Assembly (NCBI GenBank): GCA_946478965.1
Contig: CAMLDQ010000012.1
Span: forward strand, 1-41,080
DNA length: 41,080 bases
Reading direction: 5' to 3'
Source: an uncultured Methylobacillus sp.
GTDB taxonomy: Bacteria; Pseudomonadota; Gammaproteobacteria; Burkholderiales; Methylophilaceae
The notes under the pieces are model-generated. The model had not been told where the DNA came from and made no database searches. It saw only the letters and a program-made list of their open reading frames with translations. Positions 9,580-18,075 of this stretch are shown here, one piece after another. Position 1 is the stretch's first letter. The number at the start of each line of letters is the position of its first letter. The translations under genes were made by a program, and so were the position numbers.

Positions 9580-9608
9580 TTGCCCACAGCAACTGACTCA
9601 ATTATTCT
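9580..9608 (+). promoter_or_regulatory. Candidate sigma-70 promoter for glgA
   Basis: TTGCCC (9580-9585), 17-bp spacer, TATTCT (9603-9608); predicted start near 9615. It coincides with the most upstream in-frame TTG codon at 9580, arguing that translation starts further down at 9694. Confidence 0.4.
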
Positions 9609-9693
9609 ATCAGGTTTGGGGCTTGACGCGATAAGACACCCTAACCCGCCAGCAGAAACCGGGCCAGCCCTTCATACCAAGAGAGAATTTCGT

Positions 9694-11142
9694 TTGCGCA
9701 TTCTTTACGTTACATCCGAAGTCTATCCACTCATCAAGACCGGAGGACTCGCGGATGTCAGCGGTTCCCTGCCGGCTGCATTGCGAAAACTCGGTGAGGA
9801 TGTACGCCTACTCGTTCCCGGCTATCGCCCGGTAATCGAGAAACTACGTAATCAGCGCGTGCTGCTGACGTTGAAATGGCTGCCTGTCGTTGGCGACATC
9901 TCGCTCAAGATTGGGGAAATGCCGGACACCGGCGTTCCCGTATACGTCCTGGACCATCCGCAACTCTATGACCGGGACGGCGGCCCTTACCTCGATGCCA
10001 AAGGACGCGAATGGATCGACAATCCTTTGCGCTTCGGCATCCTGTCCCGCGTTGCAGCCATCCTTGGAAGCCACCTCAGCCCGCTGGCAGAATGGATTCC
10101 GGATATTGTCCATGTCAATGACTGGCAGGGAGGCTTGGCTCCAGCCTACATGCACTATTCGAGCACTCCATGCGCCAAATCGGTGCTCAGCATCCATAAT
10201 CTGGCATTTCAGGGCAACTTCGCGCAGGAATGGGTCGAAACACTTGGGCTACCGCCCCAGGGATATCGTGTTAACGGCTTTGAATACTATGGGCAGCTTT
10301 CCTTTCTCAAGGCCGGCGTCTATTTCGCCGACACCATCACCACGGTCAGCCCGACCTATGCCCGGGAAATACAAACGCCCGAATACGGTTTCGGCATGGA
10401 AGGCCTGCTTGCAACACGCAGCAAGGACATTCACGGCATCCTGAATGGGGTGGATATGGTGGAGTGGAATCCTGCGGCGGACCCCTATCTGACACATCCG
10501 TACAGCCGCGAAAATTTGCAAAACAAGGCCGAAATCAAGAGAGACCTGCAAACCCTGCTTGGTCTGGACAGAAACCACGAGGCACCATTACTGGGCGTAG
10601 TCAGCCGGCTGACGAACCAAAAGGGCCTCGATCTCTTCCTGGAATGCGCCCCCGCCCTGTTGGCGCAAGGATGCCAAATTGCCGTTCTGGGCGGTGGCGA
10701 ACCGGCGCTGGAGCAAGGCTTCAGCCACCTGGCGCTGCATCATCCGCACCAAGTCAGCGTAACCATTGGCTACAATGAACCACTTTCGCACCAAATTATG
10801 GCTGGTGCGGACATTTTCGTCATGCCCTCCCGCTTCGAACCCTGCGGCTTGAATCAGATGTACGGCCTGCGCTATGGCACACCGCCGGTGGTTCGCCGTA
10901 CCGGCGGGCTTGCCGATTCGGTAAATGACACAACGCCGGAGTCGATTGCAAACAGGAGCGCAAACGGCTTCGTATTCGACAGCGCCAATAAAGGCGATCT
11001 TCTGAGCGCCATTCAGCGCGCCCTGACCTGCTACGGCCACAAGCAGGAATGGGAAGCCATCATGAAAAATGGCATGGCCTGTGATTTAAGCTGGACCCAA
11101 AGCGCGCTCGCTTATCTGGATATTTACCGCTCGCTCATATAA
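9694..11142 (+). CDS. glgA: Glycogen synthase (ADP-glucose), GT5 family
   Basis: About 482 aa from TTG 9694, the usual GlgA size. It begins LRILYVTSEVYPLIKTGGLA, whose KTGGLADV is the ADP-glucose binding motif. Other features: HVNDWQGG, SIHNLAFQGNF, GILNGVDMVEWNP, and the C-terminal GT-B Rossmann half with SRLTNQKGLDL and PSRFEPCGLNQMYGLRYGT (catalytic Glu). The frame is open to TTG 9580, but that start lies on a predicted promoter and adds 38 non-conserved residues. TTG 9694 follows GAGAGA (9681-9686). No glgB, glgC or glgX is in the window; glgP is nearby on the other strand. Confidence 0.93.
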   Translation: MRILYVTSEVYPLIKTGGLADVSGSLPAALRKLGEDVRLLVPGYRPVIEKLRNQRVLLTLKWLPVVGDISLKIGEMPDTGVPVYVLDHPQLYDRDGGPYLDAKGREWIDNPLRFGILSRVAAILGSHLSPLAEWIPDIVHVNDWQGGLAPAYMHYSSTPCAKSVLSIHNLAFQGNFAQEWVETLGLPPQGYRVNGFEYYGQLSFLKAGVYFADTITTVSPTYAREIQTPEYGFGMEGLLATRSKDIHGILNGVDMVEWNPAADPYLTHPYSRENLQNKAEIKRDLQTLLGLDRNHEAPLLGVVSRLTNQKGLDLFLECAPALLAQGCQIAVLGGGEPALEQGFSHLALHHPHQVSVTIGYNEPLSHQIMAGADIFVMPSRFEPCGLNQMYGLRYGTPPVVRRTGGLADSVNDTTPESIANRSANGFVFDSANKGDLLSAIQRALTCYGHKQEWEAIMKNGMACDLSWTQSALAYLDIYRSLI

Positions 11143-11145
11143 ATG

Positions 11146-11161
11146 TGGCACACGTATTGCT
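11146..11161 (+). promoter_or_regulatory. Sigma-54 (-24/-12) promoter
   Basis: TGGCAC (11146-11151), 5 bp, TTGCT (11157-11161). The GG and GC dinucleotides are separated by exactly 10 bp, as RpoN requires, and both half-sites match the consensus. It begins four bases after the glgA stop and points towards the intrinsic terminator at 11206-11229, with no open reading frame between. The predicted start is about 11172. An enhancer-binding-protein site would lie within glgA; none was identified. Confidence 0.75.
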
Positions 11162-11171
11162 TATATTTAAG

Positions 11172-11229
11172 CGAGCTTTCTCCAAAGCTTAAATCTCCTC
11201 CTTGAGGGTGCGCTTCGCACCCTTTTTTT
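11172..11229 (+). ncRNA. Predicted sigma-54-dependent small RNA with anti-Shine-Dalgarno motifs
   Basis: About 58 nt between a -24/-12 promoter and a rho-independent terminator. Visible structure: a first hairpin AGCUUU-CUCC-AAAGCU (11174-11189) exposing CUCC in its loop; an unpaired linker 11190-11205 with CUCCUCCUU (11196-11204 region), complementary to an extended ribosome binding site AAGGAGGAG; then the terminator hairpin and U7. There is no start codon with an open frame, so it is not a small protein gene. This is the standard architecture of a trans-acting sRNA or a translation inhibitor. An alternative, longer 5' stem (ATTTAAGC, 11165-11172, with GCTTAAAT, 11187-11194) would need an earlier start. 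The neighbouring fecR transcript would be antisense to it if read through. Expression is unproven. Confidence 0.6.
11206..11229 (+). terminator. Rho-independent terminator (small RNA and glgA)
   Basis: GGGTGCG (11206-11212), 3-nt loop, CGCACCC (11216-11222), then seven T residues (11223-11229). It serves both the predicted small RNA and glgA read-through. On the minus strand no T-run follows, so it is not a terminator for the fecR-like gene. Confidence 0.88.
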
Positions 11230-11242
11230 CGTCTGGGAGAAA

Positions 11243-11971
11243 TCAGTAACGCCGCGGTCCGCCGTAACCTTCGTCAAACAGGTTGAATGGCGGCGTCCGG
11301 CCGACGAGTGCTTCAATGATGGCAAGCTCCAGATCGGTATGGTTCTTGAACGGCGCCGCAAGAATGCGCTGACCGCCGACCTCGGAAGCCAACACATAGC
11401 GCGGTGCATCATGGTGCTTGGAGACGATCGTTTCATGAATTTGAGGATCGTCCGCCACCGCGATATCCGTCGTTCCATAGCATGTGCAGACATATGACAA
11501 ATCGGGTTGCGCCTCGACATAGAGCCCTGTCCCGCGAATGCCGATTGTAGCGGTCGGCGTGGTGAAATGATGTTCCCGATGGCCGAAAACCGACAATAAC
11601 GCGCCGCTCAGCAGGCGCAAGCCCGACACCAGCATCGCTTCCGCTCCAGAGAGCTCCAATCGGCTACCTCCGCGCAGCAAGAAGGCGTCTTTTCCCACAA
11701 CGAAAATCAACTGGGCGTCCGGCGCCGTTTCGATATGGTCGTTCTGGCCGATCCGCGTCTCCATCCCAGCCGGTTGACCGTTGATGAACACGCCACCCCG
11801 CATGTCATAGATGGACTGGCCGGCCGGAAGTTTGTGCGGAACCTTCCCCAGCAAGTCTGCCCGCACCGCCTGAGGGAAGAGAACATTGGCAGAAAATGCG
11901 TAAACGCCTGCCCGCAATGCCTGGATTAGGAATTGACGGCGTTTTTCCAAATTTATAAGTTGTCTGGCCAT
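11243..11971 (-). CDS. FecR-domain exported protein with Tat-type signal
   Basis: About 242 aa. The N-terminus has a twin-arginine signal (EKRRQFLIQALRAGVYAFSA, RRxFL motif) followed by an A-x-A-like cleavage region near AVRA. A FecR domain follows (about 45-150: AGQSIYDMRGGVFINGQPA, then RIGQNDHIETAPDAQLIFVV). The C-terminal part (CTCYGTTDIAV, GGQRILAAPFKNH) is conserved-looking but unassigned. FecR domains occur in anti-sigma regulators and in periplasmic/surface proteins; with no sigma factor or TonB receptor nearby and no N-terminal anti-sigma region, the envelope form is more likely. Start ATG 11969-11971 is preferred to the adjacent GTG. Divergent from an outer-membrane barrel gene 40 bp away. 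Confidence 0.75.
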   Translation of the reverse strand: MARQLINLEKRRQFLIQALRAGVYAFSANVLFPQAVRADLLGKVPHKLPAGQSIYDMRGGVFINGQPAGMETRIGQNDHIETAPDAQLIFVVGKDAFLLRGGSRLELSGAEAMLVSGLRLLSGALLSVFGHREHHFTTPTATIGIRGTGLYVEAQPDLSYVCTCYGTTDIAVADDPQIHETIVSKHHDAPRYVLASEVGGQRILAAPFKNHTDLELAIIEALVGRTPPFNLFDEGYGGPRRY

Positions 11972-12011
11972 CACTGGTGTTTTATAGTCTCCTTAACAAG
12001 TGGGGTCAAGA

Positions 12012-15473: not shown

Positions 15474-16022
15474 TTATTCTAGCCGTATAAAGTGCTCGCG
15501 GTAGTATTTGAGCTCATCGATCGACTCATGGATATCGGCCAGCGCCGTATGATTGCTGGCTTTCTTGAATCCATCGTACAGCTTGGGTCGCCAGCGGCGC
15601 GCCAGTTCCTTGAACACGCTGACATCGAGATTGCGATAATGGAAATAGGCTTCCAGTTTCGGCATGTAACGCGCCATGAAGCGACGATCCTGGCAAATCG
15701 AGTTTCCGCACATCGGGGATTTGTTGGCCGGAACGTACTGGCTGATAAACTCGATCATTTGCGCCTCTGCAGCCGCTTCATCCAGATTCGACGCCTTGAC
15801 CTTGTCGATCAGGCCGGACTTGCCATGCGTTCCCTTGTTCCAGGCATCCATACCATCCAGCACGGCATCAGACTGGTGCACGACCAGTGCAGGCGACTCT
15901 GCCAGCACTTCCAGATTGCTGTCAGTGATCACCACCGCCAGTTCCAGGATCATGTCGGTCTCTGGCTGCAGGCCGCTCATCTCCATGTCGATCCAGATAA
16001 GATTATTGTTGTCTTGTGCCAT
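15474..16022 (-). CDS. orn: Oligoribonuclease
   Basis: 182 aa, standard length. 3'-5' exoribonuclease of the DEDDh family that degrades 2-5-nt RNAs, including pGpG from c-di-GMP turnover. Motifs: [15 protein letters not shown] (Exo I, Asp and Glu), [10 protein letters not shown] (Exo II), and [20 protein letters not shown] (Exo III, His and Asp). The start is ATG 16020-16022 with AAGG upstream; the frame is open to 16133 but the family N-terminus fits [12 protein letters not shown]. Divergent from the M48 protease gene (58-bp gap). Confidence 0.97.
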
Positions 16023-16080
16023 AATGAACCTTCCAACGTACTTTAGCTTCAAAAGATTGTTGAGTTTAACCGAAAAACCC

Positions 16081-17328
16081 ATGTCGATGACCGCCTTTGC
16101 CACCGTATTCCTCAGTTTGCTGATACTGACCACGCTGATCCGCCTTTGGCTTGGGCGCCGTCATATCGCTTATATCCAAGCGCACCGCGCTGCCGTTCCC
16201 TCGGCTTTTGCCGACACCATCAGCCTGGTCGCCCACCAGAAAGCAGCCGACTACTCCACGGCCAAAACCAGCCTGGTCATGACCGAAAGCGTCATCCAGG
16301 CGATCCTGCTGTTCGCCTTCACGCTCGGGGGCGGGCTGCAATGGATAGATGGCATATGGCGCGGCGTATTGCCGGACCATGAAATCCTGCGCGGTGCACT
16401 GGTCATACTTTCCGCATTCGTCGCCAGCACACTGATCGACATACCACTCGATTACTACAAAACCTTTGTTGTCGACGAACGTTTCGGCTTCAACAAAATG
16501 ACGCGCGCCATGTTCTTTACCGATCTGGTAAAGCATGCCCTGGTCGGCCTGACTCTCGGAGCCCCGCTGGTATTCGCGGCTTTATGGCTGATGCTGGGCG
16601 CGGGTGAATGGTGGTGGCTATACCTGTGGCTGTTATGGTCCGGATTCAACCTGCTGATGCTGGCGATCTACCCCACCTTGATCGCCCCGCTCTTCAACAA
16701 ATTCTCTCCGCTGACCGACGAAACCCTTAAGGCACGCATCGAAACCCTACTGACCCGCTGCGGTTTCAAGTCGCAGGGGCTGTTCGTGATGGATGGCTCT
16801 CGCCGCAGCAGCCACGGCAATGCCTACTTCACCGGATTTGGAACAGCCAAACGTGTGGTATTTTTCGATACCCTGCTGGACCGGCTCGAAGCCGACGAGA
16901 TCGAAGCCGTACTGGCACACGAACTGGGCCATTTCAAGCACCGCCACGTGATCAAGCGGATTGCCCTGATGTTTATCGTCAGCTTTGCCGGCCTGGCGCT
17001 GCTTGGCTGGCTGATACACCAGGGCTGGTTCTACATCGGGCTTGGAGTGACCCAGCCAAGCAACTACATGGCACTACTGCTATTCCTGCTCACCAGCCCG
17101 GTGTTTACTTTCCTGTTTCGCCCGCTGCTTGCCGGCTATGCGCGCAAAAACGAATTCGAGGCGGACGCCTATGCCGCCCAGCATTCCAGTGCCCGCCACT
17201 TGGTAGAAGCCCTGGTCAAGCTTTATCGCGACAATGCTTCGACGCTGACGCCGGATCCGCTGCATTCGGCCTTCTATGACTCGCATCCACCGGCCAGCAT
17301 CCGCATCGCAAAACTGGAATCGTCTTGA
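16081..17328 (+). CDS. Ste24-type M48 zinc metalloprotease
   Basis: About 415 aa integral membrane protease of the CAAX prenyl protease 1 (Ste24) group. It has several hydrophobic helices, an N-terminal peptidase_M48_N region (about 1-180, with the conserved [18 protein letters not shown]), and the zinc site HELGH ([13 protein letters not shown]) with a later Glu in [11 protein letters not shown]. In bacteria such enzymes take part in inner-membrane protein quality control; the substrate is unknown. ATG 16081 is chosen (ATG 16087 is also possible); no good ribosome binding site is seen. The cytochrome gene follows 13 bp downstream. Confidence 0.93.
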
Positions 17329-17703: not shown

Positions 17704-18075
17704 CTACTGCCCTCCCGCTCCGTCGATGCGGCTGGGGTTGCCCGCCCCGGTACTGCCTGCATAGGCAGCCCAGGCAAGTTTGAACTCTTTCAGCGTCAAC
17801 TTCCCATCGCGATTGGCATCCGCCTGCTTGAAGATGGGATCGAACCCGGGTAGCACCGTAGCATCCGTCTTGGATATATACCCTTTATTCCCATTGTCCA
17901 GTTTTGCAAAAACCGAATCTGCGGTTTCCTGATGACCAGGGACGACATTCGGCATCTCAGTAGAATCCGGCGGCATGCCGGGATCGGCGGCAATAGCCAA
18001 GCCCCCTGAAACAAGCATGATCCCCGCGCATAGAGCGCTCAGGGAAAAACGAGTCATCAAACGATTCGGATTCAT
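17704..18075 (-). CDS. Secreted EF-hand protein
   Basis: 123 aa. Signal peptide (MNPNRLMTRFSLSALCAGIM, cleavage near AIA-AD) with a mature periplasmic/secreted domain. One canonical EF-hand loop DANRDGKLTLKEF (about residues 84-96) has all the expected acidic positions; a preceding degenerate loop (LDNGNKGYISKTD) completes the pair. A Gly/Ala-rich tail ends the protein. It probably binds Ca2+; the specific role is unknown. The ribosome binding site GAGGAG is strong. Its upstream region carries a sigma-54 promoter (18145-18160) and a 10-bp hairpin at the predicted 5' end of the mRNA, so expression is likely conditional. Confidence 0.88.
   Translation of the reverse strand: MNPNRLMTRFSLSALCAGIMLVSGGLAIAADPGMPPDSTEMPNVVPGHQETADSVFAKLDNGNKGYISKTDATVLPGFDPIFKQADANRDGKLTLKEFKLAWAAYAGSTGAGNPSRIDGAGGQ

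What the first reader, a model, noticed from the sequence alone, without database searches (positions are those of the whole stretch)
11146..11229. Sigma-54-driven small RNA carrying a complete anti-Shine-Dalgarno sequence
Seen: TGGCAC-N5-TTGCT with GG-N10-GC spacing, then about 58 nt with no coding capacity: a hairpin whose loop is CUCC, a single-stranded CUCCUCCUU, and a 7-bp terminator hairpin with U7. Every part is at the distance expected for one short transcript. Known: sigma-54 promoters need an activator, so the RNA would be made only under a specific signal, and CU-rich loops or linkers are how many sRNAs block ribosome binding sites. Inference: a conditionally expressed global translation repressor, or a molecule that mimics the 3' end of 16S rRNA and titrates mRNAs. 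From memory, and unchecked, Rfam lists a betaproteobacteria toxic small RNA family described with an anti-SD motif; this could be a member or a new relative.
Basis: partly seen in the sequence, partly recalled or inferred. Interest (0 to 1): 0.88.

Follow-up and report, generated by a model that had tools for sequence, protein, structure and literature searches.

The report
Sigma-54-driven ribosome-site-blocking small RNA
Just after a glycogen-synthase gene, this methylotroph-like bacterium carries a tiny RNA gene with an on-demand promoter and a sequence suited to cover ribosome-binding sites; the same gene is kept in many related genomes and may be an unlisted genetic switch.

Summary
Window 11146-11229 is a -24/-12 (sigma-54) promoter, a hairpin with a CUCC loop, an open CUCCUCCUU and a terminator with U7, directly 3' of glgA. 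A covariance model of the RNA alone matches 124 of 187 genomes of the Methylobacillus family. A -24/-12 box of at least 12 bits lies before 98 of 100 examined matches, against 6 of 853 control windows. 95 of the 100 follow glgA, and the stems covary. Best reading: a sigma-54-activated sRNA of about 58 nt that represses selected mRNAs by pairing its two anti-Shine-Dalgarno segments with their ribosome-binding sites. It works like the double-hairpin RNAs (RF02278) and NmsR siblings. It is not an RF02278 member: no match in the window, a different order of parts, and no such promoter at 0 of 30 RF02278 loci examined, though one further RF02278 locus has a candidate box. Full-length complement before an ATG is rare (13 places in 10 genomes, reversed control 11), which speaks against a global repressor. 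Activator and targets are unknown. Longer paralogues have NtrC-like sites, and two other sigma-54 anti-SD RNA types occur outside the family. Nothing was tested in cells.

The parts
11146..11161 (+). sigma-54 promoter, -24 box TGGCAC and -12 box TTGCT
   Evidence: sequence; box of at least 12 bits before 98 of 100 model matches, 88 of the 98 at the same position, against 6 of 853 control windows. In 98 loci aligned on the boxes, positions not used for the alignment are A 100%, T 99%, T 95%.
11171..11229 (+). predicted sRNA, about 57-59 nt; start inferred about 12 nt after the -12 GC
   Evidence: spacing, fold, model R1 match of the window 11169-11232 at 75.2 bits (the window is a training row, so this match is by construction)
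11173..11190 (+). hairpin 1, 7-bp stem with loop CUCC (11180-11183)
   Evidence: fold; paired changes in both short helices of this stem
11194..11203 (+). single-stranded anti-Shine-Dalgarno linker UCUCCUCCUU
   Evidence: CTCCTCC in 92 of 100 and CTCCTC in 98 of 100 model matches; mean unpaired probability 0.966 over 98 sequences, lowest 0.55
11204..11229 (+). intrinsic terminator with U7
   Evidence: scan, fold, paired changes at all 7 pairs in 100 sequences
9580..11142 (+). glgA (glycogen synthase), conserved upstream neighbour
   Evidence: Pfam PF08323 2.6e-78; directly upstream in 95 of 100 model matches
15474..16133 (-). orn-like exonuclease; the usual convergent downstream neighbour, here displaced by other genes
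   Evidence: Pfam PF00929 1.6e-33; found on the opposite strand close by in 90 of 100 matches; the name orn is recalled

Best explanation
The locus encodes an independent trans-acting small RNA of about 58 nt. Its transcription needs RNA polymerase with sigma-54 and therefore an enhancer-binding activator that answers some nutrient or environmental signal. The RNA ends at its own terminator, whose U7 tail would be the Hfq site. The CUCC loop and the UCUCCUCC linker pair with the GGAG/GAGGAG of selected ribosome-binding sites and block translation, as shown by others for NmsR, NfeR1 and double-hairpin RNAs. Shown here by comparison: gene, promoter, fold, linker, family, synteny. Inferred: sigma-54 use in the cell, the start site, Hfq, base-pairing repression. 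Unknown: the activator and the targets.
For: Promoter 98 of 100 against 6 of 853. Model of the RNA alone in 124 of 187 genomes. A pattern of -24/-12 plus TCTCCTCC in 87 of 187 genomes against 3 for the reversed pattern. Stem covariation: 159 cells changed on both sides against 44.5 in shuffles, 0 of 500 shuffles reach it (that alignment was fitted to the structure; the unfitted 18-row alignment shows 15 cells against 5.1, 0 of 500, most of it in the terminator). Linker open in the fold. rpoN domain in 176 of 187 genomes, Hfq in 15 of 16 checked. A separate perfect-stem terminator between glgA and the promoter in 10 of 95 loci. 5 of 100 matches are not behind a detectable glgA, one of them a second copy in the same genome (L068).
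Against: No transcript has been seen. The activator is unidentified: NtrC-like sites are no commoner before the glgA-linked RNA (3 of 100) than in controls (39 of 843). rpoN is also present in 54 of 63 genomes without the RNA, so presence of rpoN does not predict the RNA. 2 genomes with the RNA show no rpoN domain (G115, G136; completeness not given). One relative (L019 = L059) keeps the RNA but has no recognisable -24/-12 box, and one (L082) has a weak one. Loop CUCC is not universal (CTCC in the first 26 nt of 89 of 100).
Confidence: 0.75

Rival explanations
1. It is only the glgA transcription terminator, and the -24/-12 match and CU stretch are fortuitous.
For: It lies directly 3' of glgA in 95 of 100 loci, within 60 nt in 74; the terminator would also stop glgA mRNA.
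Against: The box is kept at a fixed distance; DNA just upstream of it carries little conservation; 10 loci have a separate glgA terminator before it, and copies exist away from glgA.
Confidence: 0.05
2. It is a diverged member of RF02278 (double-hairpin, 'toxic' sRNA).
For: Same size class, two hairpins, two CU-rich anti-SD segments (for RF02278). RF02278 matches in 98 of 150 genomes of the order but no match is listed for a family member, so the two could be alternatives from one ancestor. One RF02278 member over the cut-off has a candidate -24/-12 box (L276).
Against: RF02278 is not among the 10 matches at E up to 10 in window 11100-11300, and none of 20 family and related loci reached gathering. 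RF02278 reads 5' UGUCUCCUCC, then a hairpin with a CU loop, then terminator; here hairpin, then linker, then terminator. 0 of the 30 best RF02278 loci has a box of 10 bits or more.
Confidence: 0.1
3. A global translation repressor or a 16S 3'-end mimic that titrates mRNAs or ribosomes.
For: CUCCUCC is complementary to most strong Shine-Dalgarno sequences; in the window the linker can form duplexes of -15.9 to -1.4 kcal/mol with 34 mechanically chosen ORF starts.
Against: The full 9-nt complement before an ATG is rare and not commoner than its reversed control except for scatter (13 against 11 places in 10 genomes, 10 of the 11 in one genome). Known anti-SD sRNAs act on defined target sets (passages of PMC5362039, PMC10746234).
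Confidence: 0.07
4. The RNA is a sponge or protein decoy (for another sRNA or an RNA-binding protein) rather than an mRNA repressor.
For: Targets are unknown; paralogues with the same linker exist in the same genomes.
Against: The conserved element is an SD complement, which is where such RNAs are known to act.
Confidence: 0.03

Closest known systems
Double-hairpin / 'toxic' sRNAs, Rfam RF02278 (ncS03, ncS05, ncS27, ncS62 of Burkholderia cenocepacia; S17S of Bordetella pertussis is a reported relative)
   Same: About 57-67 nt, two hairpins of which the second is the terminator, two CU-rich segments complementary to ribosome-binding sites, several copies per genome (PMC5688073, section 6 and passages; PMC11722255, passages).
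   Different: Order of parts, sequence, no Rfam match, sigma-54 promoter here; S17 starts from a sigma-A promoter and is cut by RNase E (PMC11722255, passages).
Neisseria sibling sRNAs NmsRA/NmsRB
   Same: An anti-SD loop and an anti-SD single-stranded stretch between hairpins, acting on the SD of target mRNAs (PMC5362039, passages).
   Different: Three hairpins, sigma-70-type promoter, tied to RelA (PMC5362039, passages).
alpha-r14 / cuckoo RNAs (NfeR1)
   Same: Repeated anti-SD CCUCCUCCC motifs in unpaired regions; nutrient (nitrogen) control (PMC10746234, passages).
   Different: Alphaproteobacterial, three hairpins each with the motif, sigma-70 promoter repressed by NtrC (PMC10746234, passages).
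RpoN-dependent sRNAs NrsZ (Pseudomonas) and GlnZ (Enterobacteriaceae)
   Same: Made under sigma-54 control (PMC9731577, passages).
   Different: Unrelated sequences; GlnZ is cut from the glnA 3'UTR. Qrr and CrcZ are further sigma-54 sRNAs that I recall and did not look up.

Membership tests
RF02278 Betaproteobacteria toxic sRNA | match to the Rfam covariance model | tested here: not met
   not among the two gathering matches in the window nor the 10 matches at E up to 10 in 11100-11300; none in 20 representative loci
RF02278 Betaproteobacteria toxic sRNA | 5' single-stranded UGUCUCCUCC, then hairpin with CU loop, then terminator hairpin | tested here: not met
   30 RF02278 loci read; the window and its relatives have hairpin-linker-terminator
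RF02278 Betaproteobacteria toxic sRNA | growth inhibition on overexpression | not testable with these tools
   needs an experiment
sigma-54-dependent sRNA | -24/-12 promoter at the right distance | tested here: met
sigma-54-dependent sRNA | rpoN present in the organism | tested here: inconclusive
   no genome is held for the window; rpoN domain in 176 of 187 family genomes
sigma-54-dependent sRNA | expression lost in an rpoN mutant | not testable with these tools
   needs an experiment
anti-SD sRNA (works like NmsR/NfeR1) | conserved, exposed SD-complementary segment | tested here: met
   CTCCTC in 98 of 100; mean unpaired probability 0.966
anti-SD sRNA (works like NmsR/NfeR1) | repression through pairing at the SD of defined targets | not testable with these tools
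   only rough duplex energies for window ORFs
NmsR siblings | three hairpins | tested here: not met
   two hairpins in the fold of 11171-11229

The most novel reading that the evidence does not exclude
In Burkholderiales in the broad sense, sigma-54 promoters have been joined to short anti-SD RNAs several times: the glgA-linked type here, its longer NtrC-site-bearing paralogue, a GGGTGAAAGC-hairpin type and a CTCCTCCGAGAGCGG type. Different enhancers would then feed one shared ribosome-site-blocking seed, a general nutrient-signal-to-translation switch.
Probability: 0.35. Interest if true: 0.75.

Novelty: new variant of a known kind. Interest (0 to 1): 0.62.

Why it matters
Anti-SD sRNAs and sigma-54-dependent sRNAs are each known, but I found no paper joining them in methylotrophs: the papers search for 'methylobacillus' with 'srna' returns 0 papers, and none of the listed papers describes it (searches show only part of the literature; one search found one paper, on GlnZ). 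If true, a family of methylotrophs carries a conserved, uncatalogued switch that couples an enhancer-sensed signal to translation, at a place (glgA-orn) that can be deleted cleanly. Which activator controls it becomes a direct question: 108 of 124 genomes with the RNA have two or more NtrC-type activators, against 10 of 63 without it (genome size is a confounder).

Tried and rejected
RF02278 membership: rejected. NtrC as activator of the glgA-linked type through a conserved upstream site: not supported, 3 of 100 against 39 of 843. rpoN presence as a predictor of the RNA: fails, 54 of 63 RNA-less genomes have rpoN. Unbiased dyad search upstream returned mainly glgA coding sequence. Extended-complement target screen: 13 places, no recurring gene that I could identify apart from a G001/G003 pair that lies on the opposite strand of other CTCCTCC-plus-terminator elements. 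Window target screen used mechanically chosen ORFs and start codons and is only illustrative. My first hand-written structure for A1 had the terminator off by one column; corrected. R1 matches outside the family are weak (27 of the 32 genomes with a match), and 3 of the 25 loci read have a box of 12 bits or more. The order-wide promoter pattern matches 44 of 300 genomes, while its reversed control matches 25 by my count, so most single hits there are chance; only the recurrent types B and C were kept.

Rows dropped: of the matches listed not all were fetched; 146 loci (L049-L194) plus the window were examined. They are 143 loci and the window with one R1 match each (100, 44) and 3 loci (L176-L178) without an R1 match, read by pattern only. 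The 44 lower-scoring matches are given apart: 33 of 44 have a box of 12 bits or more; several of them (L070-L073, L076, L077, L190-L192) are probably not members.

Full report
What is there. At 11146-11229 on the + strand, 3 nt after the glgA stop codon (11142), the window has TGGCAC-N5-TTGCT, about 10 nt of AT-rich DNA, a hairpin GAGCUUU-CUCC-AAAGCUU, the stretch AAAUCUCCUCCUU, a GC-rich hairpin and T7. The transcript expected from the promoter spacing (11171-11229) folds into exactly the two hairpins with the linker open. Neither the window nor 20 related loci has an Rfam match to this element; the best sub-threshold match in the 201-base stretch is sroB, 21.6 bits against a cut-off of 44.

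Conservation. glgA relatives were fetched (48 loci); 17 of them, all from Methylobacillus, Methylovorus, Pseudomethylobacillus or Methylophilaceae-type records and unnamed betaproteobacterial records, carry promoter plus CTCCTC behind glgA. One (L019) has the RNA without a recognisable promoter. One (L004) lacks it there but has a copy elsewhere (L067). A covariance model built from the RNA part only (R1, 18 rows) matches 19 of 19 of the source genomes and 124 of 187 genomes of the family (E up to 0.01, with filters that lose weak matches). That the window belongs to this family (Methylophilaceae; order Nitrosomonadales in NCBI) is inferred from glgA (best 73% identical) and from this RNA.

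Promoter. Of 100 strong matches (window included), 98 have a -24/-12 box of 12 bits or more, 88 of them at the same position, against 6 of 853 control windows of the same loci. Leaving out the 18 training rows, it is 80 of 82. The weights are recalled from published compilations, not from a call. In a pattern search that needs no model, TGGC-N8-TGC-N12-42-TCTCCTCC occurs in 87 of 187 genomes, its reversed control in 3. DNA just upstream of the box is little conserved.

Structure. On the 100-sequence alignment, 97.9% of cells pair and 159 cells are changed on both sides, against 44.5 in shuffles. That alignment was fitted to the model; the 18-row MAFFT alignment gives 15 against 5.1, mostly in the terminator. 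The linker is open in the folds of 98 sequences (mean 0.966, minimum 0.55). In L013-L015 the loop is not CUCC while the linker stays, which suggests that the linker is the main functional part.

Place. 95 of 100 lie directly behind glgA, 74 of these within 60 nt, and 90 of 100 have an orn-like gene convergent downstream. In the window this neighbour has moved to 15474-16133. Ten loci have a separate perfect-stem terminator between glgA and the promoter, and a few copies lie elsewhere, so the RNA is not simply the glgA 3' end.

Regulation. rpoN is in 176 of 187 genomes. 54 of the 63 genomes without the RNA still have rpoN; they are often 0.7-1.4 Mb in size. NtrC-type activators (E up to 1e-100) number two or more in 108 of 124 genomes with the RNA and in 10 of 63 without it. 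This fits an activator other than NtrC, but 16 genomes with the RNA have at most one, and genome size and completeness confound. NtrC-like sites are not enriched before this RNA (3 of 100 against 39 of 843). They are before the longer paralogue, whose box lies 65-68 nt upstream of the model match: 6 of 7, p about 1e-7, but the 7 include close relatives. In 8 of 21 loci with a long glgA-RNA spacer a PhoB-like half-site stands 9-11 nt before a -10-like hexamer (2 of 336 in controls); part of that site overlaps the glgA terminator tail, so I treat it as a lead.

Function. By anatomy it is an anti-SD sRNA. Passages of PMC5362039 report that NmsRs carry one anti-SD loop and one anti-SD linker that act on the SD of TCA-cycle mRNAs. 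Passages of PMC10746234 report three redundant CCUCCUCCC motifs in NfeR1. PMC5688073 (section 6 and passages) reports that most predicted pairings of the double-hairpin RNAs cover ribosome-binding sites and that ncS27 overexpression slows growth. I infer the same mode here. Hfq is present in 15 of 16 genomes checked; the miss is a 0.8-Mb genome. The full-length complement of the relatives' linker before an ATG is rare (13 places in 10 genomes; reversed control 11, of which 10 in one genome), so extended pairing is possible with few mRNAs.

Relation to RF02278. RF02278 matches 98 of 150 genomes of the order, none of the matching genomes being a family member reached earlier. Its consensus in the 30 loci read is UGUCUCCUCCACCCUCCUCCUUUGGUGGAUU plus terminator, and none of these 30 has a box of 10 bits or more. 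Against a clean split: a further RF02278 member just over the cut-off (L276, 50.2 bits) has TGGCATCAGGGCTGC at a suitable distance.

Beyond the family. Two other recurrent arrangements were met in 300 genomes of the order: type B (6 genomes; -24/-12, a hairpin with GTGAAAGC or a similar 5' arm, CTCCTCCAA, terminator; L264-L267, L269, L270) and type C (6 genomes; -24/-12, variable hairpin, TTTCTCCTCCGAGAGCGGTT, terminator; L271-L275, L277). Neither has an Rfam match at gathering in the loci scanned (type B all 6 and type C all 6).

Verdict. A real, conserved, uncatalogued sRNA gene whose sigma-54 promoter is about as well supported as sequence can make it; a new variant of the known anti-SD sRNA kind. 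The mechanism is inferred, and the activator and targets are open.

Noticed in passing
window 18160-18145 (- strand), gene 17704-18075 (-): A second -24/-12-like match (TGGCATGGCGATTGCT) about 70 nt before a small EF-hand protein gene, with an inverted repeat between them; its ribosome-binding site GAGGAGA is complementary to the sRNA linker.
   Followed up: partly
L069, L160, L161, L170, L074, L075, L078 (near the model match): A longer paralogue (box 65-68 nt upstream of the model match) with the same CTCCTCCTC linker; 6 of 7 have an NtrC-like site upstream.
   Followed up: partly
L264-L267, L269, L270 and L271-L275, L277: Two other sigma-54-box plus anti-SD plus terminator arrangements outside the family, 6 genomes each.
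   Followed up: partly
L049, L052, L055, L056, L058, L062, L086, L095 between glgA and the sRNA: PhoB-like half-site before a -10-like hexamer, 8 of 21 loci with a long spacer against 2 of 336 controls; possibly a second promoter of the sRNA.
   Followed up: partly
L280 and L281, about position 1514: CTCCTCC-plus-terminator elements behind a TATAAT-like -10, with a further CTCCTCC-plus-terminator element about 600 nt downstream behind an ORF end.
   Followed up: no
genomes G020-G050 and G090-G106: Small genomes of the family show no model match although many keep rpoN and one NtrC-type activator, as if the RNA was lost in streamlining.
   Followed up: partly
L175, L181 and L176-L178: Further sigma-54-box RNAs with CTCCTCC but different hairpins, each in related genomes.
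   Followed up: no
window 11243-11974 (-): The gene that stands between the sRNA and the displaced orn has no Pfam match at 1e-5.
   Followed up: no
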